64,000 nt of DNA, from assembly GCF_000426485.1 (NCBI RefSeq), contig NZ_KE384529.1, positions 634,422 through 698,421 on the forward strand. Direction: 5' to 3'. The notes under the pieces are model-generated. The model worked only from the letters and a program-made list of their open reading frames with translations, searched no databases and had not been told where the DNA came from. How positions within the stretch are numbered: the stretch's first letter is position 1; the number at the start of each line of letters is the position of its first letter. Below are positions 2,178 through 57,935 of the stretch, one piece after another. The position numbers and the translations under genes were made by a program. The stretch comes from Indolivaga capnocytophagoides DSM 22835 (GTDB lineage: Bacteria > Bacteroidota > Bacteroidia > Bacteroidales > Dysgonomonadaceae).

Positions 2178-2270
2178 AAGGCCTCAGACCTTTCTATTAA
2201 CTTTACAATAATAATAACAAGAGCTGGTTATCACTTTAAAATATGTCATTAAATACTTTCTAATATTTAA
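2178..2270 (+). repeat. Dispersed GGTCTCAGACC repeat, full copy
   Basis: Core GGCCTCAGACC at 2180-2190, then a T-rich stretch, an ATAAC/GTTAT hairpin, and the conserved tail CATTAAATACTTTCT. Same order of blocks as the copies at 22749, 24122 and 31899. Confidence 0.75.
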
Positions 2271-2454
2271 TTAGAACGGAACAATACTATATATCTTCAT
2301 GGTGATATATTTGGTGAATTATCCACGATGCTGGAATAAATAAAAGCTCAAATACTATACACAAATAGAATAAATATTTATATATTTACAAAACAATCAA
2401 CTATTAAGGGTTGTTATATCATTAACCAATAAGCTATTACTCTGGACACTAATG

Positions 2455-2622
2455 AGGTCTCGGACCTATTTATTCTATTTTATGAGGCATTTCTCACGAC
2501 TCGGCAAAGCCAAAATAAATTTTGCATATGCTTTTGCAGTTTGAAATGTTGACTTTGATAGCATAACAGCAAGAGTCTGTTGTCGCTTTAAAACAGATCA
2601 TCAGATACTTTCTGTTATTTAT
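2455..2622 (+). repeat. Dispersed repeat, full copy with about 75 bp extra sequence
   Basis: Core GGTCTCGGACC at 2456-2466. After TATTTATT about 75 bp of unrelated sequence intervenes before the internal hairpin (AACAG/CTGTT) and the tail ending near 2622. Together with the copy at 2178 it fills most of the 600-bp spacer at 2071-2671; nothing else but the promoter of the transporter was recognised there. Confidence 0.65.
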
Positions 2623-2671
2623 AAAGCCTTAGTTTCGAGATAATATATACACCATCTAATACACATTTATT

Positions 2672-3928
2672 ATGAAACCTTCAAGTTGTTTGTTTTTGAA
2701 TGTTTTGTTGGCAGTATTCTTTCTCTCCTCTACGTTTCCTTTATCGGCACAGGACGATTCGGTCATTACCATCAGCGGAATTGTAAAAGATCAGAAATCG
2801 AAAAAGAAACTCGAATACGTAAATATATCAGTACAAGGGACTAACATCGGAACGGTAAGTAACAGTGACGGTGAATTTACTCTCAAAATACCAGTCCGAT
2901 ACAAATCGGACAACCTGCTGTTTACCCATCTCGGATATAATAATCACCTGCATCCTATCGGCGGTAAAAACATCGAAAATGAAACGTTTATGCTGACATC
3001 CGACAGTCAGGTTCTCGACGAAGTTGTTATCCGGTCGGGCGATCCTCTTGCAATAGTAAGGGAAGCCGTCAAAAAAATCGACCTGAATTATACTAACTCA
3101 CCAACTATCTTATCGGGTTTTTACAGGGAAACCATACAAAAAGGAAAGAGATACATTGATATATCCGAAGCCGTGATGAACATATACAAAACATCATACA
3201 ACCAGAATACGGATAACGACGGTGTACAAATATACAAAGGACGGAGGCTTTTAAGCCCAAAACCAAGTGACACGCTGAGTGTCAAATTGCAAGGAGGACC
3301 TAATCTGGCGATATACGGCGATATTGTAAAACAGCCTTATCCTTTGCTCGATGAGGAATCGCTTCCGCTTTACATGTTCAAGATGGAAGACCCTGTAACT
3401 ATCAACGAACGCCCCCATTATACAATCAGGTTTACACCTCAGGCTATAGCCGAAATACCATTGTATACAGGCAATATATACATCGATCAGCAAAATCTGA
3501 CCATATCACGTGTCGAATACAGCCTGAGTATGGATAACAGGGACAAGGTGACCCGCATCATCCTTAAGAAGAAACCACCGAAATTGCGTTTTAAACCAAA
3601 CGAAGTCTCATTTGTCGTTACATACAAAACTTTGGAAGGTCGCAGCCGGATCAATTATATACGAAACCAGATAAGGTTCAACTGCGATTGGAAACGCCGT
3701 TTGTTCTCGACTTCCTATACCGTTATTTCGGAACTGGTAGTTACAGACAGTAAACCATTGGATATGAAAAAAGCTCCGAGTAAAGAATTTTTCAAACAAA
3801 ACCAGACGTTATCGGATAAGATAAGTAATTTTTCGGATCAGAATTTCTGGGAAGCCTATAATATTATAGAACCGACCGAATCGCTCGAATCGGCGGTTGT
3901 AAAACTAAAAAAGCAATATAACGAATAA
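2672..3928 (+). CDS. Exported protein with carboxypeptidase-like regulatory domain
   Basis: 418 residues. A Sec signal peptide spans residues 1-26, cut after PLSAQ. Residues about 32-115 form a CarboxypepD_reg-like beta-sandwich (ITISGIVKDQ at its start, LDEVVI at its end), the module found at the N-terminus of SusC-type receptors. The rest has no TonB plug or long barrel, so this is not a receptor. It resembles Bacteroidota proteins annotated only as carboxypeptidase-like regulatory domain-containing, some related to DUF5686. Probably in the periplasm or outer membrane; role unknown. It has its own transcription unit between two repeat copies and a convergent terminator. Confidence 0.75.
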   Translation: MKPSSCLFLNVLLAVFFLSSTFPLSAQDDSVITISGIVKDQKSKKKLEYVNISVQGTNIGTVSNSDGEFTLKIPVRYKSDNLLFTHLGYNNHLHPIGGKNIENETFMLTSDSQVLDEVVIRSGDPLAIVREAVKKIDLNYTNSPTILSGFYRETIQKGKRYIDISEAVMNIYKTSYNQNTDNDGVQIYKGRRLLSPKPSDTLSVKLQGGPNLAIYGDIVKQPYPLLDEESLPLYMFKMEDPVTINERPHYTIRFTPQAIAEIPLYTGNIYIDQQNLTISRVEYSLSMDNRDKVTRIILKKKPPKLRFKPNEVSFVVTYKTLEGRSRINYIRNQIRFNCDWKRRLFSTSYTVISELVVTDSKPLDMKKAPSKEFFKQNQTLSDKISNFSDQNFWEAYNIIEPTESLESAVVKLKKQYNE

Positions 3929-3969
3929 GCCTGAAGGCTTGTAGACTCTGTAATAGTAAATAGTAGAGA

Positions 3970-4007
3970 AAAAGGATGCCGGTCGATTTTTATCGTGGCA
4001 TCCTTTT
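3970..4007. terminator. Bidirectional intrinsic terminator
   Basis: AAAAGGATGCC and GGCATCCTTTT arms with a 16-base loop, A-run on one side and T-run on the other. It lies between the converging genes ending at 3928 and 4065. Confidence 0.8.
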
Positions 4008-4064
4008 CTTTTCAAAAAGTCAAATATATATAAGTGTGAATGAAGAATTTGCTCTATGTCTATG

Positions 4065-4868
4065 TTAATCTTCCCAATCGGCTATTATCTCCTGCCTATC
4101 ATACGAATAGGCACTGAAATAACCTAATGCACCTCCTGTAATATTACTTGTAGGATTATTATTAGAGTCGCTTATTCCGTCGAGAGTATAAAAATAAGTA
4201 TATGCACCTTTATCAAGGCTTTGTAATTCTATTTTCAGTCTGTCTCCTTTTTTAATCTCCTCATCTACGAGTTTTTTTTCATCCGGAAAACATAAGTTAA
4301 CATACTCTATACCATCGCTTCTGTCCATTGATATAGCTTCGTAAGCACAGGGAATGTATTTATCATTGACATATAATTTGGCTCTGTAATAATCATTGGT
4401 AGTTCCGACGGGATCTTTGAAGTGTACTCTCGGCAACCAATAATCAAGAACTTTAAAGTCAAACATACTCAGCGAATCGATCTTAACCACAGGGGGCATT
4501 TTAGATGTAGAAGTGTATGTCTGTTCATCATAAAGCACTGTGAGTTTATAGGTTCTGCCCTCAACCCCTTTCAGAGTTTTAGCAACATACCATCCTGTAC
4601 TGTTTAATAATAACGTTTCGGTATTTCCTGCATCATCACTGATCTGTATACTGGCTCCTGTAATAGGTTCGTATACATTATTATCATTAAAATCCTTGGT
4701 TTTGGTAAGTTTTACTTTTGCAATAGAATCTTTAACCACCAATCCTTCGATAACCAATCGGGGTGTAACCGAATTAAGGTCTACATCTATTTCTTTTTCG
4801 CAAGATGTAAGTATTGCTGTCATTAATAATGCAATGACTATGAGCGGTATATTTATTATTTTTTTCAT
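4065..4868 (-). CDS. DUF4249 outer-membrane lipoprotein
   Basis: 267 residues. Lipoprotein signal peptide with the lipobox Cys at residue 23 (ILTSCEKE). The mature part matches the DUF4249 layout: an early LVIEGLV strand, then an Ig-like region with KVKLTKTKDF and GASIQISDDAG. DUF4249 proteins are almost always encoded directly downstream of a TonB-dependent receptor in Bacteroidota, as here (13-base gap), and are thought to act with it at the cell surface. No enzymatic motif was seen. It is the second gene of a two-gene operon read from the promoter at 7289. Confidence 0.85.
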   Translation of the reverse strand: MKKIINIPLIVIALLMTAILTSCEKEIDVDLNSVTPRLVIEGLVVKDSIAKVKLTKTKDFNDNNVYEPITGASIQISDDAGNTETLLLNSTGWYVAKTLKGVEGRTYKLTVLYDEQTYTSTSKMPPVVKIDSLSMFDFKVLDYWLPRVHFKDPVGTTNDYYRAKLYVNDKYIPCAYEAISMDRSDGIEYVNLCFPDEKKLVDEEIKKGDRLKIELQSLDKGAYTYFYTLDGISDSNNNPTSNITGGALGYFSAYSYDRQEIIADWED

Positions 4869-4881
4869 AATGTTTTACGAT

Positions 4882-10752: not shown

Positions 10753-11448
10753 TCAAAAAATACGGTATCCTATATTCAGAAATAAATTTCGATTATATAC
10801 CTCATAAACACGGTCAATATTAACCATACCGAAATCGTATCCTAGATTAACCGAAACTTTCTTATATTCAGCGCCCAGCAATGCAGTTAATCCGGCATCC
10901 AGCCGTTTCCAATCGTCCTTACCAAAAACATCTTTCTTAGTTTTAACTACATTTTCCTTAGCATCAACCTCATCCATTGTAGCTTTTCCGCCGACACCAT
11001 AAGCCAGATACGGACCTGCTGCAATATTGATCGACAGATTATCATTCAGATCAAATTTATATCCGGCATACACAGGCACTTGCAAATATATAGCATTAAC
11101 CGAAACGCTCTGATTACCAACAATCCATCCGTTACTCATATCCATCATATAATAATCAATGATCTCGGCATTCCTGTTTTCGGCTTTGTATTTCGCTCCT
11201 TTCGACTCGAAAATCAATCCTGTCTGAAAAAACAAATCCGAAGGCAATACATATTCCGCATATATACCAAACTGATAACCGACCTTCATATCACTAGTCG
11301 TATTCTCATCCGAACCGACATATACATTCGACAAACCAGCTCCGGCTTTAAGCTGCAAAGCCCAATGTGGTTCTTTTTCCTGAGCGAAAAACACCATTGT
11401 ACAACATAAATACATTATCGTACACAACCACAATCTATACTTCATCAT
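10753..11448 (-). CDS. Small outer-membrane beta-barrel (porin-like) protein
   Basis: 231 residues, signal peptide at 1-22 (MVFFAQEKE). The sequence follows the outer_membrane_beta_barrel / PorT-like pattern: LQLKAGAGLSNVYVG first strand, GYQFGIYAEYVL, LQVPVYAGYKF and a C-terminal LNIGYRIF ending in Phe. Such eight- to ten-strand barrels are common orphans in Bacteroidota. No ligand or partner can be named. The leader of about 165 bases contains a full dispersed repeat (11477-11565). Confidence 0.75.
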   Translation of the reverse strand: MMKYRLWLCTIMYLCCTMVFFAQEKEPHWALQLKAGAGLSNVYVGSDENTTSDMKVGYQFGIYAEYVLPSDLFFQTGLIFESKGAKYKAENRNAEIIDYYMMDMSNGWIVGNQSVSVNAIYLQVPVYAGYKFDLNDNLSINIAAGPYLAYGVGGKATMDEVDAKENVVKTKKDVFGKDDWKRLDAGLTALLGAEYKKVSVNLGYDFGMVNIDRVYEVYNRNLFLNIGYRIF

Positions 11449-11476: not shown

Positions 11477-11565
11477 AAGGCCTCAGACCTTTTTGCTTCT
11501 CCAAGTAGAACAACCATAGAAAGTTATCATCTTGAAATACATCATTAAATACTTTTAGTTATTCA
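11477..11565 (+). repeat. Dispersed repeat, full copy
   Basis: Core GGCCTCAGACC at 11479-11489 and tail CATCATTAAATACTTTTAGTTATTCA. It lies inside the leader of the minus-strand barrel gene. The remaining spacer to 11911 holds only the promoter of that gene and AT-rich sequence. Confidence 0.7.
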
Positions 11566-14263: not shown

Positions 14264-14280
14264 TCAGGTCTCAGACCTGC
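14264..14280. repeat. Dispersed repeat, short copy
   Basis: Perfect core GGTCTCAGACC at 14267-14277, extended to CAGGTCTCAGACCTG. The tail blocks are absent. Confidence 0.55.
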
Positions 14281-16616: not shown

Positions 16617-16631
16617 AAGGTCTGAGACCTC
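16617..16631. repeat. Dispersed repeat, short copy
   Basis: Perfect palindrome GGTCTGAGACC at 16619-16629, preceded by ATAAAA: the inverted orientation of the core with its AT-rich flank. Confidence 0.5.
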
Positions 16632-16681
16632 AGTATATTTTCGAGTCGTAGCCTGCACCAATTGCGTTACTTTCAGAGGTA

Positions 16682-16701
16682 ATAAAAAGGTTTACGACCT
16701 T
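16682..16701 (-). repeat. Dispersed repeat, short inverted copy at the 5' end of a gene
   Basis: TAATAAAAAGGTTTACGACCTT, 15 bases before the start codon of the next gene; the orientation is that of the copies at 20616 and 32820. Confidence 0.45.
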
Positions 16702-16715
16702 AATGATAAGACATA

Positions 16716-18378: not shown

Positions 18379-19665
18379 ATGGATATATTTATTATATTAC
18401 TTCTTATATTATTAAACGGACTGTTCTCGATGTCCGAAATAGCAATCATATCGGCACGGAAATCAAAGTTATTGAACGAAGCGAAAATGGGTAATCCAAA
18501 AGCAATGGCAGCCCTCAAACTTTCGACCGAACCCAATAAATTTTTATCTACTGTACAAATAGGTATCACTCTGATAGGCATAGTTACCGGTATTTATTCG
18601 GGAGATGTCCTCACCAAAGACTTTATGCCATTGTTCAATATATTCGGACTGTCACCTGTTACAACCTACTATGTCGCACAAGGCACTATTGTAATTACAG
18701 TTACATACCTGAGCATTATTTTCGGAGAACTTGTACCGAAACGTATAGGTATGAGTCTGGCCGAGAAAGTGGCAAAACTTGTTGCGCGCCCCATGACAAT
18801 ACTTTCGCATATAGCATCACCTTTTGTCTGGATACTTTCAAAAAGTACATCTTCGATCTTCAATATTCTTAATATCCATGACAAGGATAATAAAGTGACC
18901 GAAGAAGAAATTAAATCTATGATCAAAGAAGGAACGGAAGACGGCGAGGTTAAAAAAGTGGAACAGGATATTGTCGAGCGGGTATTTACTCTCGGCGACC
19001 GTACCCTCGAATCTATCATGACACACCGCGGCGAGATTGTCTGGCTGAATACAAGCATGACTCCGGAAAAGATCAATGATACCGTACAAAACAATCTTTT
19101 TAATGTATATCCCGTAGCTGATCACAATCTCGATGATATATCAGGGGTCGTATTCCTGAAAGATCTGTTCGGAAAGATACAGCAATCCGGATTTAAGCTC
19201 GAAAGCGTGATCCGCCCCTGCCAGTATTTCCCCGAACACATGGACGTGTACACCGCACTCGACCACATGAAAAGCAGCCACGTGCATTATGCGCTTATCT
19301 GCGATGAATTTGGTGGAATAGTGGGTATTATCACCCTCAAAGATATTCTGGAAGCATTAGTAGGAGCAATACCCGACGACTACGAAGAACCCGAAATCGT
19401 TGTCAGAGACGATGGCAGCTGCCTTGTCGACGGACAATGCCCCTTCTATAATTTTCTTTTATATTTCGATCTCGGCAATCTGTATTTCGAGAACGAATAT
19501 AATACCATCAGTGGTTTGATTCTGGATCTTTTACAACACATCCCCATTACCGGCGAGAAACTCGAATGGAATAACCTGATATTCGAGATCGTAGATATGG
19601 ACGGGGCTCGTATTGATAAAGTTCTGGTTAAGCACAAACATCAAATCGTGACACAAGAGAATTAA
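18379..19665 (+). CDS. CNNM/CorC (hemolysin C) family membrane protein
   Basis: 428 residues. DUF21/CNNM membrane domain at about 1-190 with three to four membrane segments; two CBS domains at about 205-335 (TLESIMTHRGEIVWL and CDEFGGIVGIITLKDIL); CorC_HlyC domain at about 345-420 (DGSCLVDGQ, YNTISGLILDLL, DGARIDKVLV). The full three-part layout is that of Mg2+/Co2+ efflux-related proteins often misnamed hemolysins. The CBS pair usually senses ATP-Mg. Inner membrane. It stands alone; no metal-responsive leader was recognised. Confidence 0.92.
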   Translation: MDIFIILLLILLNGLFSMSEIAIISARKSKLLNEAKMGNPKAMAALKLSTEPNKFLSTVQIGITLIGIVTGIYSGDVLTKDFMPLFNIFGLSPVTTYYVAQGTIVITVTYLSIIFGELVPKRIGMSLAEKVAKLVARPMTILSHIASPFVWILSKSTSSIFNILNIHDKDNKVTEEEIKSMIKEGTEDGEVKKVEQDIVERVFTLGDRTLESIMTHRGEIVWLNTSMTPEKINDTVQNNLFNVYPVADHNLDDISGVVFLKDLFGKIQQSGFKLESVIRPCQYFPEHMDVYTALDHMKSSHVHYALICDEFGGIVGIITLKDILEALVGAIPDDYEEPEIVVRDDGSCLVDGQCPFYNFLLYFDLGNLYFENEYNTISGLILDLLQHIPITGEKLEWNNLIFEIVDMDGARIDKVLVKHKHQIVTQEN

Positions 19666-19697
19666 GGTACTTCAGACTTTCGATTTTTTCAGTTATC

Positions 19698-19790
19698 AAG
19701 GTATCAGACCTTTTTATAACTTTGGTAAGTAAAACAATCAAAGTCTGTTATAAACTAAAACACATCATTAAATACTAGATGTTACTTACT
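19698..19790 (+). repeat. Dispersed repeat, full copy
   Basis: Core GGTATCAGACC at 19700-19710, ACTTTGGTAAGTA block, internal AACA/TGTT hairpin, tail CATCATTAAATACTAGATGTTACTTA. Its tail overlaps the stop codon of the minus-strand gene at 19786. The TAACTTTG in this copy is also a perfect -7 promoter box. Confidence 0.75.
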
Positions 19791-20238: not shown

Positions 20239-20257
20239 AAAATAAATAATTTTAGTT

Positions 20258-20305
20258 AAGGTCACAGACCTTCTTTGTTACTTATAGTAAGTACAAGCGC
20301 AACAG
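20258..20305 (+). repeat. Dispersed repeat, truncated copy
   Basis: Core GGTCACAGACC at 20260-20270, followed by TTCTTTGTTACTTATAGTAAGTACAA and GCAACAGAACATTAA; the tail is incomplete. Confidence 0.5.
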
Positions 20306-20488
20306 AACATTAATCTTTTAAGAAACATTAGTAGAGACACTTATCCTCACTTAATTATTACAGAACAGACTCTTGTGTTATATATAAGACGTGAAAATTT
20401 AGAAAATGTTGTATATGAGATCAAAAAAAATATAGAAATATAGAAAACCAGAATAGCGACTACAAAAAGCCCAACCACTCTCTACCCC

Positions 20489-20534: not shown

Positions 20535-20615
20535 CATAAACTAAAAGCTAATTTTTTTCTTTTTTTCTAAAAAAAAGTATTTAACGATCAACTTTTTTCG
20601 ATCAAACCCAACTTT

Positions 20616-20646
20616 TTACCAAAGTAATAAATAGGTCTGTGACCTT
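20616..20646 (-). repeat. Dispersed repeat, short inverted copy
   Basis: TTACCAAAGTAATAAATAGGTCTGTGACCTT: the reverse complement of the 5' third of the full copy at 31899. It lies in the receptor gene's leader, ending 13 bases before the ATG. Confidence 0.65.
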
Positions 20647-20659: not shown

Positions 20660-22750
20660 ATGAAGAAAAACTGTTATCTCCTCTTATTATGTATTTCCTT
20701 AGTGAATACCAATACCATACTAGCCGAAGACACAACCATTCCACGAGATTCGATAAAAATGTCATATACAGCAGATGAAGTTGTTATTCAAGCATTTAAA
20801 AAGAATGACAATATTTCGGTACAACCCGTATCTGCTACATTGATTACAGATCAGACGATCAAAGACCGAAACATCAGCAATATCAAAGAAGTGAGTGCTT
20901 ATGTACCCAACCTTTTTATTCCGGACTACGGTTCTAAGATGACATCACCCGCATATATCAGAGGTGTAGGATCGAGAATAAACGCACCATCGGTAGGTTT
21001 ATATGTAGACGGTATCCCTTATTTCGACAGATCGACTTTTGATTTCAGTCTCAACGATATAGACCGCATCGAAGTACTTAGAGGCCCTCAGGGAACACTC
21101 TACGGACGTAATACAATGGGAGGCATCATCAATGTATTTACCAAATCGCCTTTCAAATACAAGGAAACAAACCTGAGCCTATCGGCAAGCAGCTACGATA
21201 ATTACAAGGCCGAAGCATCTCATTACGGCAATATAAATAATGTTTTGGGATATTCCCTGTCCGGAAATGTTTCGCATGCAGGAGGATATTTCCGCAATCG
21301 TTTTACCGGCAAAAGAGCCGATCCTGTAGATGCCGCTGCCGGACGTATCCGCTTAAGCTGGAAAATTCAACCTCAGCTTTATATCCACCTTACATCCGCA
21401 TACGAGTATTCCGACCAGGGAGGTTATCCATACGGAATATATCATGCCGAAAATAATTCGGTAGATGATGTCAATTACAATATGCCCTCGTTTTATCGCC
21501 GCAATGTTTCTACAACGGGTGTGAATGTGGCATATACGACAGATAACATACAACTCAGCTCGCAGACATCATTTCAATACTTCGACGGACGTCAGGGTAT
21601 AGATCAGGATTTCAGTACTACCGACCTTTATTATGTAGACTTCGGACAACGTCAGAGAATGGTTTCTCAGGAACTAAACTTCAAATCGAGAGGCAGCAGC
21701 AAATACCAATGGCAATTCGGCGCATTCGGTTTTTATCAGGATTTCAGTACCGATAACGACATAGATAACCGAGGAACAGCCGTGCATACCCTGCAAGATA
21801 TAAACAGCCCGACAAGGGGAGCCGCCGTATACCATCAGTCAACATTCAACGATATTTTGACCGATGGACTATCGCTTATACTGGGAGCCCGTTACGATTG
21901 GGAAGAAGCCCGTATGCACACGGTTGTGCATAGTCTGAAAGCTGATACTAAAACCGAAACGATGAATATCAGACGACAAGATCATTTTTCGGAATTTACA
22001 CCTAAGGCATCATTACAATATCGGTTTACAAATGACGAAATAGTTTATTTCTCTGTCGCCAAAGGATACAAAGCCGGAGGTTTCAATACAACAGTAGAGC
22101 GTGACGAAGACCGATCGTTCAAACCCGAACAAAGCTGGAATTACGAAATAGGCACAAAAGCAAGCTGTTTGGATAAATTGATATACACTGAAATCAGCCT
22201 GTTCTATATAGACTGGAAAGATCAACAGATATCACAATCACAACCAAGCGGAAAAGGATTCCTGCTGCGTAATGCCGGTAAATCGGTTAGTAAAGGTCTT
22301 GAGGTCACATTACACATAAATCCGATGGAAAACCTGAGCGTGCAGTTGAGTTACGGTTACACTCATGCCAAATTTAAACGATATACCGTGAATGACACTG
22401 TAAGTTATGCTAACAATCGTTTACCGATGGTTCCATCGAATACATTTTCGGTAACAGCCGATTACACCATCAAACTAAAAGATTCGTTTCTTGATAAAAT
22501 CGTCTTAAACGGGCAATATGTAGGTCTTGGCAAACTATACTGGAATGAAGATAACAAAGCTATGCAGCCTTACTATGGAACATTCAACGGTAAGGTCTCA
22601 TTCGTTGCTAAAAAAATCTCATTCGATCTATGGGCTAAAAATATAGGCTGCAAAGATTATATATCATATTATTTTACATCAATGGGTAAGACCTTTGCTC
22701 AGGCAGGACGTCCGTTTACATTCGGGGCTAATGTCAATCTGAAATTTTAA
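20660..22750 (+). CDS. TonB-dependent receptor, siderophore/haem class
   Basis: 696 residues from the ATG at 20660, which opens a normal signal peptide (MKKNCYLLLLC to ILAED); an ATG 21 bases upstream lies inside a repeat. No carboxypeptidase-like domain. A TonB-box-like DEVVIQAF follows at about 35, then the plug at about 50-165 (VSAYVPNL, YIRGVGSRI, DRIEVLRGPQGTLYGRNTMGGIINV), then the barrel ending FTFGANVNLKF. This is the FyuA/PbuA-like class that takes up iron chelates or tetrapyrroles, unlike the SusC-type receptors elsewhere in the window. It shares an operator and promoter layout with the MFS-hemN operon. Confidence 0.9.
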   Translation: MKKNCYLLLLCISLVNTNTILAEDTTIPRDSIKMSYTADEVVIQAFKKNDNISVQPVSATLITDQTIKDRNISNIKEVSAYVPNLFIPDYGSKMTSPAYIRGVGSRINAPSVGLYVDGIPYFDRSTFDFSLNDIDRIEVLRGPQGTLYGRNTMGGIINVFTKSPFKYKETNLSLSASSYDNYKAEASHYGNINNVLGYSLSGNVSHAGGYFRNRFTGKRADPVDAAAGRIRLSWKIQPQLYIHLTSAYEYSDQGGYPYGIYHAENNSVDDVNYNMPSFYRRNVSTTGVNVAYTTDNIQLSSQTSFQYFDGRQGIDQDFSTTDLYYVDFGQRQRMVSQELNFKSRGSSKYQWQFGAFGFYQDFSTDNDIDNRGTAVHTLQDINSPTRGAAVYHQSTFNDILTDGLSLILGARYDWEEARMHTVVHSLKADTKTETMNIRRQDHFSEFTPKASLQYRFTNDEIVYFSVAKGYKAGGFNTTVERDEDRSFKPEQSWNYEIGTKASCLDKLIYTEISLFYIDWKDQQISQSQPSGKGFLLRNAGKSVSKGLEVTLHINPMENLSVQLSYGYTHAKFKRYTVNDTVSYANNRLPMVPSNTFSVTADYTIKLKDSFLDKIVLNGQYVGLGKLYWNEDNKAMQPYYGTFNGKVSFVAKKISFDLWAKNIGCKDYISYYFTSMGKTFAQAGRPFTFGANVNLKF

Positions 22751-22842
22751 GGTCTCAGACCTTTTTATTGTCCACCCAAGTATAACAGCAACAACCTGTT
22801 ATTGCTTTGAAATGCAACATTAAATACTTACTGTTACTTATA
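22749..22842 (+). repeat. Dispersed repeat, best-preserved full copy
   Basis: Core GGTCTCAGACC at 22751-22761, starting on the base after the receptor's TAA stop codon (22748-22750). Internal hairpin ATAACAG-CAACAAC-CTGTTAT is perfect over 7 bp. Tail AACATTAAATACTTACTGTTACTTA. Confidence 0.8.
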
Positions 22843-22961: not shown

Positions 22962-23663
22962 TTACTTCAACACATGACCGAACAATCTTTTTTCGGAAGG
23001 AGTCAACTCTTTCAATTCGGGTTCGGGCTGGGTAAGAATTTCTGCTAATAAAGCCTGAAAATTCGGTGCCAGACTTTCGGTTTCACCCGTTTCATTATCG
23101 ACATATACTATCCGGTAATCTTTATTTTCGCAATCCTCATCGAGCAGATCAAAACATATATCCCCGTGATCACTATACTCTCCGATACTGAATAATCCTT
23201 TATCGAGAATGAACTCCCGTTTCTCCTCATTCTGTTTTTTCAGGATAGCTGCCCATGTATTTATAGGGGACGGATAGAGCTTAATTTCGATATTCCAATA
23301 CACCTGATAAAAATGCCTGTAACTTAAGTACCACTTATATGTATCGGGTAATTTTATCGAAAAATAGGTTTCAAAATCTTTTATATCTTTCGGGGTTATT
23401 GTGCTTGCTACGGGTTTCCACTCTTTATATTCATCGGTTATTTTGTTCACAATCGATCCACTGGTATCGGGCTGTACTAATTTCATAACATCAGGTTTAT
23501 CCCTATACTCTTCCGGATTGGAACCGATATACATTTCGGGTTGGACACCCTCACCAAACTCCTGAACAAAAAACGAGTCAACATACATTAAATACTCGTG
23601 GTGTTTACGAGCCAAGGCTATCGCCTTGTCTACATAATATTCGATTACAGTATAATCAGGCAT
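22962..23663 (-). CDS. SMI1/KNR4 (SUKH) domain protein
   Basis: 233 residues, cytoplasmic, no signal or membrane segment. Residues about 80-215 carry the SUKH pattern: ITPKDIKDFETYFSIKLPDTYKWYL opening helix, then YSDHGDICFDL and a strand-turn-strand with VYVDNETGE. SUKH proteins are best known as immunity proteins of contact-dependent or polymorphic toxins, but many are stand-alone. No toxin gene, Rhs or VENN/PT motif is next to it. The N-terminal 75 residues are predicted helical and not part of the fold. It is flanked on both sides by dispersed repeats. Confidence 0.75.
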   Translation of the reverse strand: MPDYTVIEYYVDKAIALARKHHEYLMYVDSFFVQEFGEGVQPEMYIGSNPEEYRDKPDVMKLVQPDTSGSIVNKITDEYKEWKPVASTITPKDIKDFETYFSIKLPDTYKWYLSYRHFYQVYWNIEIKLYPSPINTWAAILKKQNEEKREFILDKGLFSIGEYSDHGDICFDLLDEDCENKDYRIVYVDNETGETESLAPNFQALLAEILTQPEPELKELTPSEKRLFGHVLK

Positions 23664-23694
23664 TCTATTTCTCCTCGCTCTTTAAAGGTCACAG

Positions 23695-23735
23695 ACCTTT
23701 TTTGTTATTTAGTAAGTATTACCTCAGTCCTTATC
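23695..23735 (+). repeat. Dispersed repeat, truncated copy
   Basis: Core GGTCACAGACC at 23697-23707, followed by TTTTTTGTTATTTAGTAAGTATTA; close to the copy at 20258. Confidence 0.55.
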
Positions 23736-23928
23736 ATTATTTTGATACATTTAATCAAAACAAAGGATACCAAGAATACTTACGTTAGTTAGATCATCAA
23801 TACTTCAAACAGAATTCCTGTTGCGCCACCGTCTTTATTGTTCAACACTCGTGCTGCTTTATAAAAAAACTCTGACTAATTTCAGTAAAGGAAGCTGGCC
23901 TGCCCCCTCTATACACAAGACGGTTTAC

Positions 23929-24072: not shown

Positions 24073-24121
24073 CAGATAATAATAGCAGTTTTTATCTATA
24101 CAGAAAAGTAAATATGGAAAT

Positions 24122-24217
24122 TAAGGTCTCAGACCTATTTATTGTCTACCCAAGTATAACTCCAATAGAAAGTTATTACTTTAAAACATGACGTTAAATA
24201 CCTACTGCTACTTATTA
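24122..24217 (+). repeat. Dispersed repeat, full copy
   Basis: Core GGTCTCAGACC at 24125-24135; internal hairpin ATAACT/AGTTAT, with different bases from the 22749 copy but still paired; tail GACGTTAAATACCTACTGCTACTTATTA. Confidence 0.8.
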
Positions 24218-27113: not shown

Positions 27114-27126
27114 TCACTTATTCGTT

Positions 27127-27160
27127 TGCCAAAAGTAATAAATAGGTCTCTTAGACTTTA
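27127..27160 (-). repeat. Dispersed repeat, short inverted copy
   Basis: GCCAAAAGTAATAAATAGGTCTCTTAGACTTT: matches the copy at 20616 except for a damaged palindrome. It lies between hemN and the next reading frame. Confidence 0.5.
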
Positions 27161-27688: not shown

Positions 27689-27711
27689 GATGCTGATATA
27701 AGCTATAAAAT

Positions 27712-27742
27712 AAAAGACCCGAAAATTATTTTCGGGTCTTTT
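27712..27742. terminator. Bidirectional intrinsic terminator
   Basis: Perfect 14-bp arms AAAAGACCCGAAAA / TTTTCGGGTCTTTT with a 3-base loop. Confidence 0.85.
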
Positions 27743-27763
27743 GGTTATTGTAAAATGACAAAA

Positions 27764-31870: not shown

Positions 31871-31885
31871 AAGGTCGCAAACCTT
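31871..31885. repeat. Dispersed repeat core, short copy
   Basis: AAGGTCGCAAACCTT, a 15-bp palindrome with a changed centre, right at the expected nfn transcript start. Confidence 0.4.
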
Positions 31886-31898: not shown

Positions 31899-31994
31899 AA
31901 AGGTCTCAGACCTTTTTATTACTTTGGTAACTATAACAACCAAAGTCTGTTGTTGACTAAAAATGTATCACTAAATACTTTCTTTTACTTAAAA
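31899..31994 (+). repeat. Dispersed repeat, full copy ending at a start codon
   Basis: Core GGTCTCAGACC at 31902-31912, TTTTTATTACTTTGGTAA, hairpin AACAAC/GTTGTT, tail CACTAAATACTTTCTTTTACTTA. It ends six bases before the ATG of nfnA, so it forms the ribosome-binding region. Confidence 0.8.
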
Positions 31995-32000: not shown

Positions 32001-32783
32001 ATGAATAAAATTATCCAGAAACAATACTTCTCGCCCAAAGTAGTTGAATTCGTAGTAGAAGCACCTCTCATAGCCCGAAGTCGCCGTGCAGGACATTTTG
32101 TAATTGTGAAAGTCGGAGAAAAAGGCGAACGTATCCCTTTGACTATAGCACAAAGCGATGTCGAAAAAGGCACTATCACCATTGTTGTACAAAGTGTGGG
32201 TCTATCGTCCGAAAAATTATGCAACCTCGAAGAAGGAGACTACATCACCGATTTGGTAGGACCTTTGGGTAAAGCTACTCATATCGAAAAATACGGAACA
32301 GTTGTTTGTGCCGGAGGCGGTGTTGGTATTGCTCCGATGCTACCTATTATCGAAGCTATGAAAAAAGCAGGAAACCGTGTTATATCGGTTCTTGCGGCAC
32401 GTAACAAAGACCTTGTTATATTAGAAGAACAAGTGGCGAAATACTCGGACGAAGTAATCGTTATGACCGATGACGGATCTCACGGACAAAAAGGACTGGT
32501 TACAAACGGAGTAGAATCGGTAATAAACCGCGAACAAGTAGATTTGTGTGTAACAATCGGACCTGCCATCATGATGAAGTTCGTGTCCCTTCTTACTCAA
32601 AAATACAATATCCCCACGATGGCATCGCTCAATACCATCATGGTAGACGGAACCGGAATGTGCGGAGCATGCCGTGTATCGGTAGACGGAAAGACCAAAT
32701 TCGTTTGTGTCGACGGACCCGAGTTCGATGCACACAAAGTTGATTTTGACGAAATGCTAATGCGTCTGAAAGCATACAACTGA
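32001..32783 (+). CDS. nfnA: NfnA-type FAD/[2Fe-2S] ferredoxin:NAD oxidoreductase subunit
   Basis: 260 residues. An FAD-binding ferredoxin-reductase barrel (about 1-95, with RAGHFVIVKVGEKGERIPLTI) is followed by an NAD-binding fold (GTVVCAGGGVGIAPMLPI at about 95) and a C-terminal [2Fe-2S] cysteine cluster (MCGACRV and later FVCVDGP). This is the small subunit of the NADH-dependent ferredoxin:NADP+ oxidoreductase, also annotated sulfide dehydrogenase or dihydroorotate dehydrogenase electron-transfer subunit. Its partner is the next gene. Together they link NADH, NADPH and reduced ferredoxin pools in anaerobes by flavin-based bifurcation. Confidence 0.88.
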   Translation: MNKIIQKQYFSPKVVEFVVEAPLIARSRRAGHFVIVKVGEKGERIPLTIAQSDVEKGTITIVVQSVGLSSEKLCNLEEGDYITDLVGPLGKATHIEKYGTVVCAGGGVGIAPMLPIIEAMKKAGNRVISVLAARNKDLVILEEQVAKYSDEVIVMTDDGSHGQKGLVTNGVESVINREQVDLCVTIGPAIMMKFVSLLTQKYNIPTMASLNTIMVDGTGMCGACRVSVDGKTKFVCVDGPEFDAHKVDFDEMLMRLKAYN

Positions 32784-32819
32784 AAATAATTAATTATCTA
32801 CAAGATTTGGTTGTCTCTA

Positions 32820-32851
32820 CTTACCAAAGTAATAAAAAAATCAGAGACCTT
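32820..32851 (-). repeat. Dispersed repeat, short inverted copy inside the nfn operon
   Basis: CTTACCAAAGTAATAAAAAAATCAGAGACCTT: the inverted short form, with a damaged palindrome. It fills the gap between nfnA and the chosen nfnB start. Confidence 0.55.
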
Positions 32852-32863
32852 AACAGAAAGAAA

Positions 32864-34339
32864 ATGACACGACAAGAATATATGAAAGAAAGGCGCAGCG
32901 AGCCTTGGAGAGACGAATTGAGACGAAGTGTAAAAGCAAAAGAACGGGGAGAACGTCCACGTGTACACATGAATGAACTCGATCCTGAATTTCGCAGCCA
33001 TGAATTGAAAGCCGAAGTAAATCAGGGATTAACAAAAGAACAGGCTATTGCAGAAGCCGGACGATGTCTGGATTGCGGAAATCCGACCTGTGTAACCGGA
33101 TGCCCTGTCGAAATCAACATCCCTACATTTATAAAAAATATAGAACGGGGCGACTTTATCGAAGCCGCACGTACACTTAAAGAAACCAGTGCATTGCCTG
33201 CTGTATGCGGACGTGTATGCCCTCAGGAAAAACAATGCGAAGCCCAATGTATCTATATCCAGAAAATGGGTAAAGAGCCTGTGGCAATCGGCTATCTCGA
33301 AAGATTTGCCGCCGACTACGAAAGATTGAACGGTATAATAGCCGAACCCGAAAAGCCGGTATCAAACGGTATCAAAGTAGCAGTTGTAGGCTCAGGCCCC
33401 GCCGGGCTCTCTTTCGCCGGAGACATGGCCAAACGAGGATACGACATAACCGTGTTTGAAGCCCTGCATGAAATAGGCGGGGTATTAAAATACGGAATAC
33501 CCGAATTCCGCCTGCCAAACGATGTTGTTGATGTAGAAATAGAAACCCTTCGCAAAACAGGTGTTAAGTTCGTAAAAAACTGCATTATCGGAAAAACGAT
33601 ATCTCACGAAGATCTTCGTGCCGAAGGATTTAAAGGAATATTTGTAGCCAGCGGCGCAGGATTACCTAATTTTATGAATATTCCGGGAGAAAACCTGATA
33701 GGGGTAATGTCAGCAAACGAATTCCTTACCCGTGTCAATCTGATGGATGCCTCTAGTCCCGACAGCGACACTCCCGTGCAGAAAGGCAAAAGTGTGGCCA
33801 TTATCGGAGCAGGAAACACGGCTATGGATGCAGTACGCACCGCACGCCGCCTTGGAGCAGAACGGGCTATGGTCGTTTACCGCCGTTCGGATGAAGAAAT
33901 GCCGGCTCGTGCCGAAGAAGTAAAACACGCCAAGGAAGAAGGTGTGGAATTCCTGACTCTCCATAATCCGATACAATACGAAGGCGATGATAAAGGTCAT
34001 GTACAGCGCATGCTCCTTCAGAAAATGGAGTTAGGAGAAGCCGATGCATCCGGACGCCGCAAACCTGTACCTATCGAAGGTGCAACAGAATGGATCGATG
34101 TCGATGAAGTTATAGTGAGTGTGGGAGTATCTCCCAATCCTTTGATTCCTTCAACATTCACCGGTCTGGATGTGACAAAATGGGGTACTGTTGTTATCAA
34201 TCAGGATACGATGCAAACCGACCTTTCGGATGTCTACGCCGGAGGTGATATTGTTCGCGGAGGGGCAACAGTTATTCTGGCTATGGGAGACGGAAGACGT
34301 GCAGCTGAAGCGATGGATAAATCTTTACAAGCCAATTAA
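32864..34339 (+). CDS. nfnB: NADPH-dependent glutamate synthase small-subunit-like protein (NfnB)
   Basis: 491 residues from the ATG at 32864. An in-frame ATG at 32807 would translate the repeat copy at 32820 into a non-conserved extension, so it is not preferred. N-terminal domain with two [4Fe-4S] cysteine groups (CLDCGNPTCVTGCPV and CGRVCPQEKQCEAQC); FAD-binding GXGXXG at about residue 180 (VVGSGPAGLSFAGDMAKRG); second nucleotide fold at about 325 (IIGAGNTAMDAVRTARR). A GltD/NfnB protein. Coupling to NfnA rather than to a glutamate synthase large subunit supports the NfnAB assignment. Confidence 0.88.
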   Translation: MTRQEYMKERRSEPWRDELRRSVKAKERGERPRVHMNELDPEFRSHELKAEVNQGLTKEQAIAEAGRCLDCGNPTCVTGCPVEINIPTFIKNIERGDFIEAARTLKETSALPAVCGRVCPQEKQCEAQCIYIQKMGKEPVAIGYLERFAADYERLNGIIAEPEKPVSNGIKVAVVGSGPAGLSFAGDMAKRGYDITVFEALHEIGGVLKYGIPEFRLPNDVVDVEIETLRKTGVKFVKNCIIGKTISHEDLRAEGFKGIFVASGAGLPNFMNIPGENLIGVMSANEFLTRVNLMDASSPDSDTPVQKGKSVAIIGAGNTAMDAVRTARRLGAERAMVVYRRSDEEMPARAEEVKHAKEEGVEFLTLHNPIQYEGDDKGHVQRMLLQKMELGEADASGRRKPVPIEGATEWIDVDEVIVSVGVSPNPLIPSTFTGLDVTKWGTVVINQDTMQTDLSDVYAGGDIVRGGATVILAMGDGRRAAEAMDKSLQAN

Positions 34340-37329: not shown

Positions 37330-37350
37330 GTTACCAAGGTCTAAGACCTT
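37330..37350 (-). repeat. Dispersed repeat, short copy abutting a stop codon
   Basis: GTTACCAAGGTCTAAGACCTTA, core at 37338-37348; the next base starts the stop codon of the minus-strand ATPase gene. Confidence 0.5.
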
Positions 37351-45929: not shown

Positions 45930-45977
45930 AAGAAATAAATTTAACATTACAATAGATTTTCTTCATCCACAACAGAT

Positions 45978-46075
45978 TAAGATTCCAGATCTATTTATTG
46001 ACTCTGCAAGCATAACAACAACAGTCTGTCATCGTTTATAAATACATCATTAAAATCTTACTGTTACTTATTCAA
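45978..46075 (+). repeat. Dispersed repeat, full but degenerate copy
   Basis: Core decayed to GATTCCAGATCT, followed by ATTTATTGACTCTGCAAGCATAACAACAACAGTCTG and the tail CATCATTAAAATCTTACTGTTACTTA. Confidence 0.65.
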
Positions 46076-47572: not shown

Positions 47573-47667
47573 TGCTATAAGTAAAAGGAAGTATTTAAAA
47601 ATATACTTTCAGAGAGTAAAAACTCCGGTATTTCACTTAGCTAAGCAACAAATAGGTCTGAGACCTT
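47573..47667 (-). repeat. Dispersed repeat, full inverted copy
   Basis: Perfect core GGTCTGAGACC at 47655-47665 with AACAAATA before it; the tail block TAAGTAAAAGGAAGTATTTAAA at the left end is the reverse complement of the usual one. It lies in the leader of the zinc-ribbon gene. Confidence 0.6.
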
Positions 47668-47677
47668 ACAATAAACA

Positions 47678-50954: not shown

Positions 50955-50988
50955 CTTTATTTTATGTAAATAACAGGTTTAATTATAA

Positions 50989-51003
50989 AAGGTCTGTAAC
51001 CTT
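50989..51003. repeat. Dispersed repeat core between carA and carB
   Basis: AAGGTCTGTAACCTT, core at 50991-51001; it abuts the carA stop codon at 51002. Confidence 0.5.
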
Positions 51004-52072
51004 AAAGTTTTTCGAAAAACATATCGAATAAGAAATCTGTATCAGTAGGTCCACTGGCAGCTTCGGGGTGAAACTGTGCGGAAAAGAACGGTTTGGTTTT
51101 ATGCTTGATACCTTCGTTAGTTCCATCATTCAGATTGATGAACAATGGTTCCCAGTCAGCACCCAATGATGAATTTGATACTGCAAAGCCGTGATTTTGA
51201 GATGTAATAAAGCAACGTGTAGAATTTACCATCTTCACCGGCTGATTGTGACTACGATGACCGTATTTCAGCTTATATATCGTAGCTCCTCCTGCTTTCG
51301 ATAATAATTGGTTACCCATACATATACCACAGATAGGTTTATCGCCTTGCATAGCTGTACGGATATTTTGCACGGTTGCCTCGCAAAAGTCGGGGTTACC
51401 GGGTCCATTTGAGATAAATAGTCCGTCCCATTCCAATTGGTTGAAGTCATAATCCCAAGGAACACGTATCAATGTGATATCCCGCTTAAGCAGACATCTT
51501 ATTATATTGTGTTTTACACCACAGTCAACAAGCACTACCTTTTTCTTGCCCGATCCGTATGTGATTACTTCTTTGCAACTGGCCAATGCCACCTGATTTT
51601 CTATATTAGGATCTAGAAATTCAATTTCGTTTTCGTCTTTGAATACGATCTTCCCTTTCATCGAACCTTTTTCACGAAGCAGCTTCGTCAACTCACGGGT
51701 ATCTATACCATAAATGCCCGGCACATTGTTTTCTTTAAGCCATTCACCTAAGCTTTTCTTAGCATTCCAGTGAGAGTATTCGTGCGAATAATCGGAAATG
51801 ATCAATCCATTAACCTGAATTCGTTCCGACTCATAAAAGTTAGAAATGCCATCGGTAAAAGTATTATCGGGAACACCGTAATTACCAACAAGCGGAAAAG
51901 TAACAACTAATATCTGACCAAGGTACGAAGGGTCTGTCAAACTCTCGGGATATCCGACCATAGCTGTACTGAACACCACTTCTCCGGCTGATGCGCTTTC
52001 TGCACCAAACGACCGCCCTTCGAAGATAGTTCCGTCATCAAGAATCAATCGAACAGGTTTGTCTATCTGCAT
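51002..52072 (-). CDS. carA: Carbamoyl-phosphate synthase small subunit
   Basis: 356 residues. The N-terminal CPSase small-chain domain (ILDDGTIFEGRSFG, GYPESLTDPSY, YGIDTRELT) is followed by a class I glutamine amidotransferase domain with the nucleophile Cys251 (GICMGNQLL) and the His/Glu of FHPEAASGP. It hydrolyses glutamine and passes ammonia to CarB. First gene of the carAB operon; the leader contains an attenuator-like hairpin. Confidence 0.98.
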   Translation of the reverse strand: MQIDKPVRLILDDGTIFEGRSFGAESASAGEVVFSTAMVGYPESLTDPSYLGQILVVTFPLVGNYGVPDNTFTDGISNFYESERIQVNGLIISDYSHEYSHWNAKKSLGEWLKENNVPGIYGIDTRELTKLLREKGSMKGKIVFKDENEIEFLDPNIENQVALASCKEVITYGSGKKKVVLVDCGVKHNIIRCLLKRDITLIRVPWDYDFNQLEWDGLFISNGPGNPDFCEATVQNIRTAMQGDKPICGICMGNQLLSKAGGATIYKLKYGHRSHNQPVKMVNSTRCFITSQNHGFAVSNSSLGADWEPLFINLNDGTNEGIKHKTKPFFSAQFHPEAASGPTDTDFLFDMFFEKL

Positions 52073-56002: not shown

Positions 56003-56107
56003 ATCTGATAAAATATTGTAAGTGGACGGTATATACCTCTTGAATAAAGAATTGGACATTTCCGTCTACAGTATAAATACGATGTTTATAAAAAAAGAAA
56101 GATTCAT

Positions 56108-57739
56108 ATGAAAAAAATAATAAAAGGCTTACTCTTTGCATCTCTTCTTATATCTACTACTTCTTGTAAAGATTTAGAAGAAATAAATGTAGATCCTAAC
56201 AACCCCACAGAGGTGTCGACTCCTGCCATTTTGCTGGGTGCAGAGAAAAAAATAATGGACTATATGTATGATAACTGGTTTAGCGGTCGTCAGAATTTGG
56301 TATATGCTCAATATTGGGCTCAACGTAACTATACGGAAGAAGATCGTTATCAGATAAGAGAATCGGTAAATAACAGTTATTTCAATTACTTCTACACTGC
56401 TGCATCCAATCTAGCTAAAATCGAAAAGATGAATTCGGATGAGGCAACTAAAGGAACAGCCGCGGTTTACGGAGACAACAATAACCAGATCGCAACTGCT
56501 AAAATATTGAAAATATGGCTGATGCAGGTATTGGCTGATACTTGGGGTGGAATTCCTTATAGCGAGGCCTTTAAGTTGACTGACGGAACTTTTTATCCTA
56601 AATACGATGATTTGGATCAATTATATGCATCGCTTATCTCGGAATTGGATGAGGCTATTGCTTTGATAGACGTGAATGAAGACGGCTTTACTACTGGAGA
56701 TAACATCTATGACGGAGATCCTGTTTTGTGGAAAAAGTTTGCTAATTCTTTAAAATGTCGTCTTGCCATACGCCTATCAAAGGTAGATTCGAACTGGAAA
56801 AAATATATTGCGGAAGCCGTAGAATCGGGAGTTTTCACCAGCAATGATGATAATGCTCTATTTGAATATTCGACTACAGCTCCAAACCAATCTTATTTTT
56901 ACAGAGGATTTTTTGTTGATGCTCGTAACGACTTTTCAATCTCTAAACCTTTTACTGATTTATTAAAAGGTCAGGCTGATACTCTAAATGCAAAATCTCA
57001 CCCATGGAAAGGGGTTGTCGACCCTCGTTTGCCTATTTATACTTCAGCAAATGATGCCGGTGAATATATCGGGGTACCTTATGGAGTAGAAAGTAACGAT
57101 TTGTCGAGTGTTGCACCCGGAATTGATTACGCACCAGACTTCTCCAAGGGCAAACCATTGGTTGTACAAGCTAACTTCTCAGTACCATTGCTTACCTATG
57201 CCGAAATATGCTTTATCTTATCTGAATACAACGGATTTTCAGCAGATGAATACAAGAAAGGGATAGAAGCTTCCATTGACTTCTGGAGTGATATGAATGT
57301 TGCAGTAAAAGGAGGAAAAGCTGTATCTGATGCAGATAAGGCAACTTATATTGCAGCTGTTAGCAGTAAAGTTAATGCTGAAACTGTAGCTACACAAAAG
57401 TACATTCATTTATATATGGATGGAACCGAAGCTTGGGCTGAATACAGACGTACAGGCTACCCTTTAACGTTGCTTAAACCTGACGAACATTCAACTGTAG
57501 CTTATCTCTATGACGACAAAGGAAATATAACAGGTACCACAATACTGGATTTTACAACATTATCGGAAACAAAAGGCGATTTACCCGCCCGTATTAAATA
57601 TCCGACTAATGAAAGTACCCTGAATCCTACAGGTTTCAAGGATGCTGTTGCTAAACTGACAGATGGTACTAACAATTACTATAGCAAAATGTTTTGGGAT
57701 GTAAGGACCACATCAAATCCTCATCCTGTAAATAAATAG
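56108..57739 (+). CDS. SusD/RagB-family lipoprotein (SusD-like_2 type)
   Basis: 543 residues. Lipoprotein signal with Cys20 (LISTTSCKD). VDPNNPTEVSTPAILLGAEKKI and the TPR-like helical body (NNQIATAKILKIWLMQVLADTWGGIPYSEAF) match the SusD-like_2 subfamily, which differs from classical SusD. It binds ligand at the cell surface and caps the SusC barrel. It follows the SusC gene by 105 bases. An intrinsic terminator closes the pair, so the genes downstream belong to another unit. Confidence 0.93.
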   Translation: MKKIIKGLLFASLLISTTSCKDLEEINVDPNNPTEVSTPAILLGAEKKIMDYMYDNWFSGRQNLVYAQYWAQRNYTEEDRYQIRESVNNSYFNYFYTAASNLAKIEKMNSDEATKGTAAVYGDNNNQIATAKILKIWLMQVLADTWGGIPYSEAFKLTDGTFYPKYDDLDQLYASLISELDEAIALIDVNEDGFTTGDNIYDGDPVLWKKFANSLKCRLAIRLSKVDSNWKKYIAEAVESGVFTSNDDNALFEYSTTAPNQSYFYRGFFVDARNDFSISKPFTDLLKGQADTLNAKSHPWKGVVDPRLPIYTSANDAGEYIGVPYGVESNDLSSVAPGIDYAPDFSKGKPLVVQANFSVPLLTYAEICFILSEYNGFSADEYKKGIEASIDFWSDMNVAVKGGKAVSDADKATYIAAVSSKVNAETVATQKYIHLYMDGTEAWAEYRRTGYPLTLLKPDEHSTVAYLYDDKGNITGTTILDFTTLSETKGDLPARIKYPTNESTLNPTGFKDAVAKLTDGTNNYYSKMFWDVRTTSNPHPVNK

Positions 57740-57763
57740 TTCTTGATTTTACTCAATTTTTTG

Positions 57764-57798
57764 GAAAGAGCGGGCCGTTGATGGTTCGCTCTTTTATT
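57764..57798 (+). terminator. Intrinsic terminator after the SusD gene
   Basis: AAAGAGCG ... CGCTCTTT with internal GGCC/GGTT pairing and a trailing T-run. Confidence 0.75.
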
Positions 57799-57840
57799 TT
57801 TAAACTCTACTCTTTCAGAAAAAAGTACTAATTTTAAAGA

Positions 57841-57935
57841 ATTAAGTAACAGAAAATATTTAATGACGTATTTAAAAGCGATAATCAGCTCCTGCGGCTA
57901 TGCTTGCAAAGTCTATAAATAGGTCTGCTACCTTA
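57841..57935 (-). repeat. Dispersed repeat, full inverted copy
   Basis: Left end ATTAAGTAACAGAAAATATTTAATGACGTATTTAAA is the reverse complement of the tail block; right end AAATAGGTCTGCTACCTTA is the degenerate core (57922-57932). The internal hairpin reads AGC/GCT. It ends about 25 bases before the acetyltransferase ATG. Confidence 0.7.

What the first reader, a model, noticed from the sequence alone, without database searches (positions are those of the whole stretch)
2178..57935. A dispersed intergenic repeat family built on GGTCTCAGACC
About two dozen copies lie between genes, none inside a clear coding region. Full copies (2178, 2455, 11477, 19698, 22749, 24122, 31899, 45978; inverted at 47573 and 57841) run about 95 bp: palindromic core, T-rich block, hairpin, then a tail like CATTAAATACTTACTGTTACTTA. 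Short copies (14264, 16617, 20616, 27127, 32820, 37330, 50989 and others) keep only the palindromic end. The 2178-33000 part of the window is densest. I know no named family with this consensus; it may be a non-autonomous mobile element, a REP-like element or an RNA regulatory element.
Basis: seen in the sequence. Interest (0 to 1): 0.78.

Follow-up and report, generated by a model that had tools for sequence, protein, structure and literature searches.

The report
Small TA-targeting mobile repeat in Dysgonomonas
A roughly 95-letter DNA element without genes has copied itself to many places between the genes of a Dysgonomonas-like bacterium and its relatives, mostly without breaking genes, and the enzyme that moves it is not yet known.

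Summary
The repeat family is real. GGTCTCAGACC with up to 1 mismatch occurs 22 times in the window against 0.38 expected; the wider core has hundreds of matches genome-wide, control 1. Most copies are about 95 bp: TA-AGGTCTNAGACCTWTTTATT ... TACT-TA.

It is a mobile, non-autonomous insertion element. In 24 of 26 comparisons with sister species the profile finds no element in the matching spacer. Near-identical copies lie in unrelated flanks. In G105, from another family of the order, empty sites show one TA where filled sites have TA...TA.

Insertion into TAA stop codons is frequent and keeps the stop: the rebuilt codon is TAA in 11 of 12. In the window's genome, but not in D. alginatilytica, copies cluster 8-32 bp upstream of start codons.

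Members with changed loops and interiors occur in five other Bacteroidales families.

No moving enzyme was identified. Y1 and DDE_3 transposases are not detected in the window's genome. RNA structure is not conserved beyond the end hairpin; Rfam has no match. Five literature searches gave no name for it.

The parts
2176..2269 (+). full copy of the element
   Evidence: profile hit
2455..2622 (+). full copy with an internal insertion of about 70 bp
   Evidence: profile hit
11477..11563 (+). full copy, 29 bp from the start codon of the leftward gene 10753-11448; the matching G004 spacer has no copy by the profile
16634..16703 (-). partial copy, about 13 bp upstream of gene 16716; no copy by the profile in G001, G002, G004, G005
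19697..19788 (+). full copy between two gene 3' ends; the spacer is 120 bp here and 5, -4, 7 and 6 bp in G004, G001, G002, G005 (empty sites)
20256..20353 (+). full copy; by eye G004 has a co-linear spacer with a single TA where this copy sits
20569..20646 (-). nearly full copy, about 14 bp upstream of gene 20660
22747..22841 (+). full copy; its left-end TAA is the stop codon of gene 20660-22750 (the one of 12 stop-codon cases whose rebuilt codon is not TAA)
23685..23758 (+). partial copy, 22 bp from the start codon of the leftward gene 22962-23663
24121..24215 (+). full copy
31900..31992 (+). full copy, 9 bp upstream of gene 32001; G002 also has a copy in this spacer, G004 not by the profile
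32764..32853 (-). decayed full-length copy, about 11 bp upstream of gene 32864
45977..46071 (+). full copy
47577..47668 (-). full copy, inverted
57842..57936 (-). full copy, inverted, 25 bp upstream of gene 57961
14265..14279 (+). palindrome-only site CAGGTCTCAGACCTG
16617..16631 (.). palindrome-only site
31871..31885 (+). degenerate left-end site 29 bp left of the full copy at 31900
37336..37350 (.). palindrome-only site AAGGTCTAAGACCTT between two gene 3' ends
27126..27157 (-). decayed left end
50983..51003 (-). decayed left end overlapping the stop codon of gene 51002-52072

Best explanation
This is a short (about 95 bp), gene-less mobile element that is moved in trans. Its end signals are TA-AGG (in the window's family part of a small hairpin AGGTCTNAGACCT followed by WTTTATT) and TACT-TA. 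It inserts at a TA dinucleotide so that TA stands on both sides afterwards. Because the sequence after the TA begins with A at both ends, read inwards, insertion into a TAA stop codon recreates TAA; such insertions, and others between genes, survive. Shown: mobility, sharp ends, the TA junction, and stop-codon insertion. Inferred: that an unidentified enzyme recognises both ends, that copies outlived it in this genome, and that the left end acts as a weak one-way terminator, which would favour left-end-first insertions after stop codons.
For: Filled and empty spacers between species: 24 of 26 comparisons over 13 spacers. In D. alginatilytica a 97.9% pair and an identical 128 bp pair lie in unrelated flanks. 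Burst in G105: 16 of 42 listed matches (query included) run from position 1 to at least 104 at 92-100% identity (only 40 of 322 candidates were scored); a right-end pattern gives 226 matches, control 0. Empty sites in G105: 3 of 34 filled sites have a counterpart with a single TA and at most 1 mismatch in 24 flanking bases, two of them with none. TA...TA in 87 of 124 good full copies. No variable target duplication in 64 copies. Rebuilt stop codon TAA in 11 of 12, against A in 30 of 75 other copies. Left end exactly at a stop 8 of 24 and 15 of 40; right end 2 of 23 and 1 of 21 (own genome, G002). End hairpin -5.1 to -5.5 kcal/mol; terminator-like sites 27 against 9.8 +- 3.2 in 19-33 kb, 6 of the 27 being left ends.
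Against: No autonomous copy or moving enzyme was identified in the DNA read. The two ends share little beyond TAAG; the wider inverted repeat is weak: for the consensus 96 of 20000 shuffles do as well, and over 168 copies the mean score is 3.28 against 2.75 for shuffles and 3.21 for an internal segment. The G105 empty sites lie in other repeats, so they are paralogous, and no chance control was run for them. Some spacers called empty may hold decayed copies: G004 has a left end in the spacer matching window 32783-32864 that the profile missed. Only 87 of 124 copies show TA at both ends. Terminator activity was not tested; G001 shows no exact stop-codon case among 9 copies.
Confidence: 0.85

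Rival explanations
1. It is a classical MITE: an internally deleted DNA transposon of a TA-duplicating DDE family (IS630/Tc1 type or an IS5 subgroup; target sizes recalled), with decayed terminal inverted repeats.
For: TA at both ends. The best copies align over the terminal 26 bases (e.g. L011_18556) and the consensus pair beats all but 96 of 20000 shuffles.
Against: DDE_3 (IS630) is not detected in 6 of 7 carriers searched, including this genome. Over all copies the end-to-end score is no better than an internal control. In G105, by eye, the ends share only TAAG although copies are near-identical. Other DDE families were not searched.
Confidence: 0.4
2. It is moved by a single-strand (HUH, IS200/IS605- or REP-like) enzyme that cuts after TTA or TA; TA on both sides is then target plus right cleavage site rather than a duplication.
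For: Hairpin at the left end; weak or no terminal inverted repeat; excess of one orientation relative to GC skew (own 53:23, p=0.0008; G002 50:35, p=0.13; G001 18:10, p=0.18). T precedes the left TA in 31 of 46 (own) and 37 of 59 (G002) copies. Y1_Tnp genes occur in 7 of 10 other carriers and in 4 of 5 distant carriers.
Against: No Y1_Tnp detected in this genome or in G005, G003, G029 and G119 (G003 is 62% and G119 77% complete). The RAYT-like proteins of G001, G002, G004 and G019 fall into two clades. Of 18 Y1 loci none is enclosed by left ends; 2 have one left end about 0.8 kb away; right ends and the sister left end were not looked for there. In G105 no T preference before TA (8 of 34). The strand bias is not significant outside the own genome.
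Confidence: 0.2
3. It is a conserved cis-regulatory element (terminator, leader RNA or protein-binding site) kept by selection rather than a mobile element.
For: Own genome: left end 8-32 bp upstream of a start codon in 27 of 48, null 7.9 +- 2.5, maximum 20 in 2000 draws. The left end is terminator-like. Pair 6-14 of the palindrome shows a few two-sided changes.
Against: Spacers mostly lack it in sister species. The start bias is absent in D. alginatilytica (13 of 40, null 10.6 +- 2.8) and in G001 (0 of 5). The 28 downstream genes look unrelated, judged by eye. No RNA fold beyond the end hairpin and no Rfam match. Reading out of the left end, the promoter box TAnnTTTG is exact only 1 time in 60 own copies and 4 times in 62 of G002; one-mismatch forms are common on both strands.
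Confidence: 0.05

Closest known systems
[quoted passage not shown]
   Same: Short, gene-less, high copy, intergenic, fixed ends, TA at the junctions, patchy presence among relatives.
   Different: Terminal inverted repeat weak or limited to TAAG; no parent transposon found; left end is itself a palindrome.
REP / REPIN repeats with RAYT transposases
   Same: Palindromic unit, many copies between genes, some orientation excess relative to GC skew.
   Different: No GTAG or CGTC tag, no RAYT detected in this genome, about 95 bp with two unlike ends. GTAG-tagged repeats do occur in D. alginatilytica, some nested inside this element (their kind recognised by recall).
IS200/IS605-derived non-autonomous elements
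   Same: Hairpin near an end; no target duplication demonstrable beyond TA.
   Different: No Y1 partner shown; the hairpin lies at the very tip of the element.
BOX, RUP and similar small bacterial repeats (features recalled; named in the listing)
   Same: Small interspersed repeats between genes.
   Different: Other hosts; sequences were not compared here.

Membership tests
MITE | short, no coding capacity, many dispersed copies | tested here: met
   136 of 170 left-right pairs are 90-99 bp; hundreds of core matches
MITE | insertion shown by empty sites and target duplication | tested here: met
   empty sites in sister species and in G105; TA on both sides against one TA. Whether TA is a duplication or part of the element cannot be told
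MITE | terminal inverted repeats | tested here: inconclusive
   consensus: 96 of 20000 shuffles as good; mean over 168 copies 3.28 against 3.21 for an internal segment; only TAAG in G105 by eye
MITE | parent transposon with the same ends | tested here: inconclusive
   none in the DNA read, but most of each genome was not read
REP/RAYT | GTAG or CGTC tag at the foot of the palindrome (title of PMC3733652, seen in listings 11 and 22) | tested here: not met
   TTA or TA precedes the palindrome AAGGTC...GACCTT in the consensus
REP/RAYT | RAYT gene in the genome, flanked by the repeat | tested here: not met
   no Y1_Tnp in G000 and G005; none of 18 Y1 loci elsewhere enclosed by left ends, 2 of 18 with one left end about 0.8 kb away
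IS630/Tc1 derivative | DDE_3 transposase in carriers | tested here: not met
   not detected in 6 of 7 carriers; present in G052
IS200/IS605 derivative | hairpin-bearing ends and a Y1 partner with the same ends | tested here: inconclusive
   left hairpin present; Y1 genes in many carriers but none shown to have these ends
Structured regulatory RNA | conserved fold or Rfam match | tested here: not met
   RNAalifold on 155 copies keeps only the end hairpin, reverse strand none; Rfam 0 matches in the window

The most novel reading that the evidence does not exclude
A previously undescribed superfamily of TA-inserting small elements in Bacteroidales, with unlike ends TAAGG and TACTTA that tolerate swapped interiors and even swapped left ends. 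It is moved by an enzyme that is neither a known Y1 nor an IS630-type transposase, and it spreads stop-codon-preserving portable terminators; in the window's genome old copies have become common parts of gene leaders.
Probability: 0.25. Interest if true: 0.75.

Novelty: new member of a known kind. Interest (0 to 1): 0.5.

Why it matters
Repeats of this class can reshape gene ends and leaders over whole genomes. This one has fresh copies in a cultivated species, D. alginatilytica, so its moving enzyme and its effect on transcription can be looked for directly. Insertion into stop codons without harming the protein is a simple and testable way for a repeat to spread in a gene-dense genome.

Tried and rejected
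Target duplications of 2-9 bases: none beyond fixed letters in 64 copies. Autonomous copies (lone left end, gene, lone right end): 12 candidates, 6 of them read, and 8; the proteins printed are not recognisable transposases by eye (no family search was run on them). RAYT/Y1 partner. IS630 partner. RNA fold and covariation; the other high-scoring column pairs are mostly not base pairs and look like subfamily signal. Promoter inside the element: not supported. Plasmid and phage copies: one 95 bp query each, no match. A 22-base core in viral contigs: none. Strand bias read from the genome search pattern listings was rejected: the lists omit reverse matches (window copies 47667- and 20646- are missing), so only own profile counts were used. 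The start-codon bias looked general in pooled data but split into own genome only. The seeds of the profile are window copies, so the 15 window hits are not independent of it; the independent test is. The stretches read from this genome were partly chosen around matches, so densities are not extrapolated. Single matches at 2 mismatches are at noise level: the reversed control also has single matches in G011, G017, G018, G033 and G052. Mended after the filing check: other families carrying it are five, not six; the G105 burst count is 16, not 17; Y1 presence in other carriers and the internal control are now told.
Full report
OBSERVATION. The palindrome GGTCTCAGACC with up to 1 mismatch occurs 22 times in 64 kb, against a mean of 0.38 and a maximum of 3 in 100 shuffles. 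The wider core AAGGTCTNAGACCTWTTTATT with up to 3 mismatches gives 303 forward and 306 reverse matches in the 4.38 Mb genome that holds the window, control 1 and 0; palindromes can be counted twice. A profile from 12 window copies, iterated over the window and 400 kb more, ended at 88 copies at E<=0.001. Of 170 left-right end pairs in the loci then held, 136 are 90-99 bp long. About half of the left ends have no recognisable right end within 280 bp: 75 of 133 in the own genome, 65 of 138 in G002.

HOST. 

MOBILITY BETWEEN SPECIES. For adjacent gene pairs conserved with four same-genus relatives, 13 spacers carry a copy here. In 24 of 26 spacer comparisons the profile finds none in the relative, and in 2 of 26 it does; of 33 comparisons of spacers empty here, 1 is filled in the relative. 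The clearest case is the spacer at window 19665-19786: 120 bp here, and 5, -4, 7 and 6 bp in G004, G001, G002 and G005. The comparison is not free of error: the G004 spacer matching window 32783-32864 shows a left end that the profile missed.

RECENT MOVEMENT. In D. alginatilytica, copies 94-98% identical lie in different flanks (the one 100% pair listed there is the same place fetched twice). Two 128 bp copies that carry an internal GTAG-type repeat are identical in unrelated places. In G105, from another family of the order, the right-end pattern gives 226 matches, control 0. Of 30 distinct right ends read, 3 have the AAGGTCT left end, 23 a sister left end of the type TAAGGAATGATACAATTATTC, and 4 could not be assigned.

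JUNCTION. Among 124 good full copies in G000, G002 and G001, TA stands at both ends in 87. In G105, 3 of 34 distinct filled sites have a counterpart elsewhere without the element, with a single TA and at most 1 mismatch in 24 flanking bases, two with none; weaker counterparts exist for more sites but no chance control was run. These empty sites lie in other repeats, so they are paralogous. No longer target duplication is visible. A TA duplication and a cut after TA cannot be told apart from sequence.

WHERE IT SITS. In the own genome 1 of 74 copies overlaps a called gene by more than 25 bp; in G002 3 of 85. Left ends coincide with a stop codon in 8 of 24 (own) and 15 of 40 (G002) cases that face a gene end; right ends in 2 of 23 and 1 of 21; G001 has none among 9 copies. 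In 11 of 12 testable left-end cases removing the element leaves TAA, against A in 30 of 75 other copies: the element went into an existing TAA and preserved it. In the own genome the left end lies 8-32 bp upstream of a start codon in 27 of 48 cases (TA-weighted null 7.9 +- 2.5, maximum 20 in 2000 draws) and the right end in 7 of 38; in G002 the left end in 13 of 40 (null 10.6 +- 2.8) and the right end in 16 of 42, so this is not general. The 28 genes behind such own copies look diverse, e.g. gap, tsf and gltD (names by eye from sequence).

ORIENTATION. Relative to third-position GC skew one orientation is in excess: 53:23 in the own genome (p=0.0008), 50:35 in G002 (p=0.13), 18:10 in G001 (p=0.18) (6 copies of G000 and G002 in places of weak skew left out). 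Strand information in the genome search pattern listings proved incomplete and was not used.

STRUCTURE. The left end folds at -5.1 to -5.5 kcal/mol. Loops vary between lineages (TCA, TAA, TTA, TTC) while the stem is kept. Beyond that no fold is conserved over 155 copies, and Rfam has no match in the window. In 19-33 kb of the window terminator-like sites are 27 against 9.8 +- 3.2, 6 of the 27 being left ends of this element. The two ends resemble each other weakly at best: the consensus is matched by 96 of 20000 shuffles, and the mean over 168 copies (3.28) equals an internal control (3.21).

DISTRIBUTION. Of 393 Bacteroidales genomes, drawn evenly, 11 have the 22-base core with up to 1 mismatch; they belong to 7 of 206 genera, in the own family and five others. 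Of 61 close relatives, own genome included, 14 have the 21-base core with up to 2 mismatches, among them 5 of 6 same-genus genomes and G052 of another family with 929 matches. Many of the distant copies read keep TAAGGTCTNNGACCTATTTAWT and end in TACTTA or TGCTTA but differ inside. No match in plasmids, phages or viral contigs with the queries used.

ENZYME. Y1_Tnp is not detected in G000 and G005; it occurs in 7 of 10 other carriers and 4 of 5 distant ones, but of 18 Y1 loci none is enclosed by left ends and 2 have a single one about 0.8 kb away. DDE_3 is not detected in 6 of 7 carriers. A scan for a gene between a lone left and a lone right end returned no transposase recognisable by eye. 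The own copies are old (best pair 89%), so the enzyme may be lost here.

NOVELTY. Five literature searches of the held library found no paper with the motif as a repeat or with such a family in Dysgonomonas (listings only, no paper opened; three papers unrelated by title contain the 11-base string). I place it as a new family of small non-autonomous mobile elements, MITE-like in behaviour; strict MITE membership is open because the inverted repeats and the parent element are not shown.

Noticed in passing
L033:3189-3316, L083:4717-4844, L069, L084, L096, L098, L109: In D. alginatilytica a GTAG-tagged palindromic repeat (GTAGGGGYGAACCTATGTGTTC...CTGCCCCTAC) sits inside several copies at a similar point; one such chimera exists as two identical copies in different places. 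G001 has matches over the full 128 bases at about 79%.
   Followed up: partly
L300-L329 (G105): A sister subfamily, TAAGGAATGATACAATTATTC...GTAAAAACTTTTGTATGGGTACTTA, makes up 23 of 30 distinct right ends read and looks very recently active.
   Followed up: partly
L286, L319, L322, L290, L325 (G105): G105 holds other repeats (e.g. CATTAAATAGCTCGCTATTTGCAGATT) into which the element has inserted more than once.
   Followed up: no
window 27711-27743: Strong bidirectional terminator-like hairpin AAAAGACCCGAAAATTATTTTCGGGTCTTTT between two gene 3' ends.
   Followed up: no
L135, L137: RAYT-like proteins of G004 and G001 contain a VGAGLC segment, as if a GTAG repeat were part of the gene; likely partners of the GTAG repeats and not of this element (inference).
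   Followed up: no
The genome search pattern output: The listing of reverse-strand matches is incomplete (two known window copies are missing) although the counts are said to be whole; strand conclusions from it would be wrong.
   Followed up: yes
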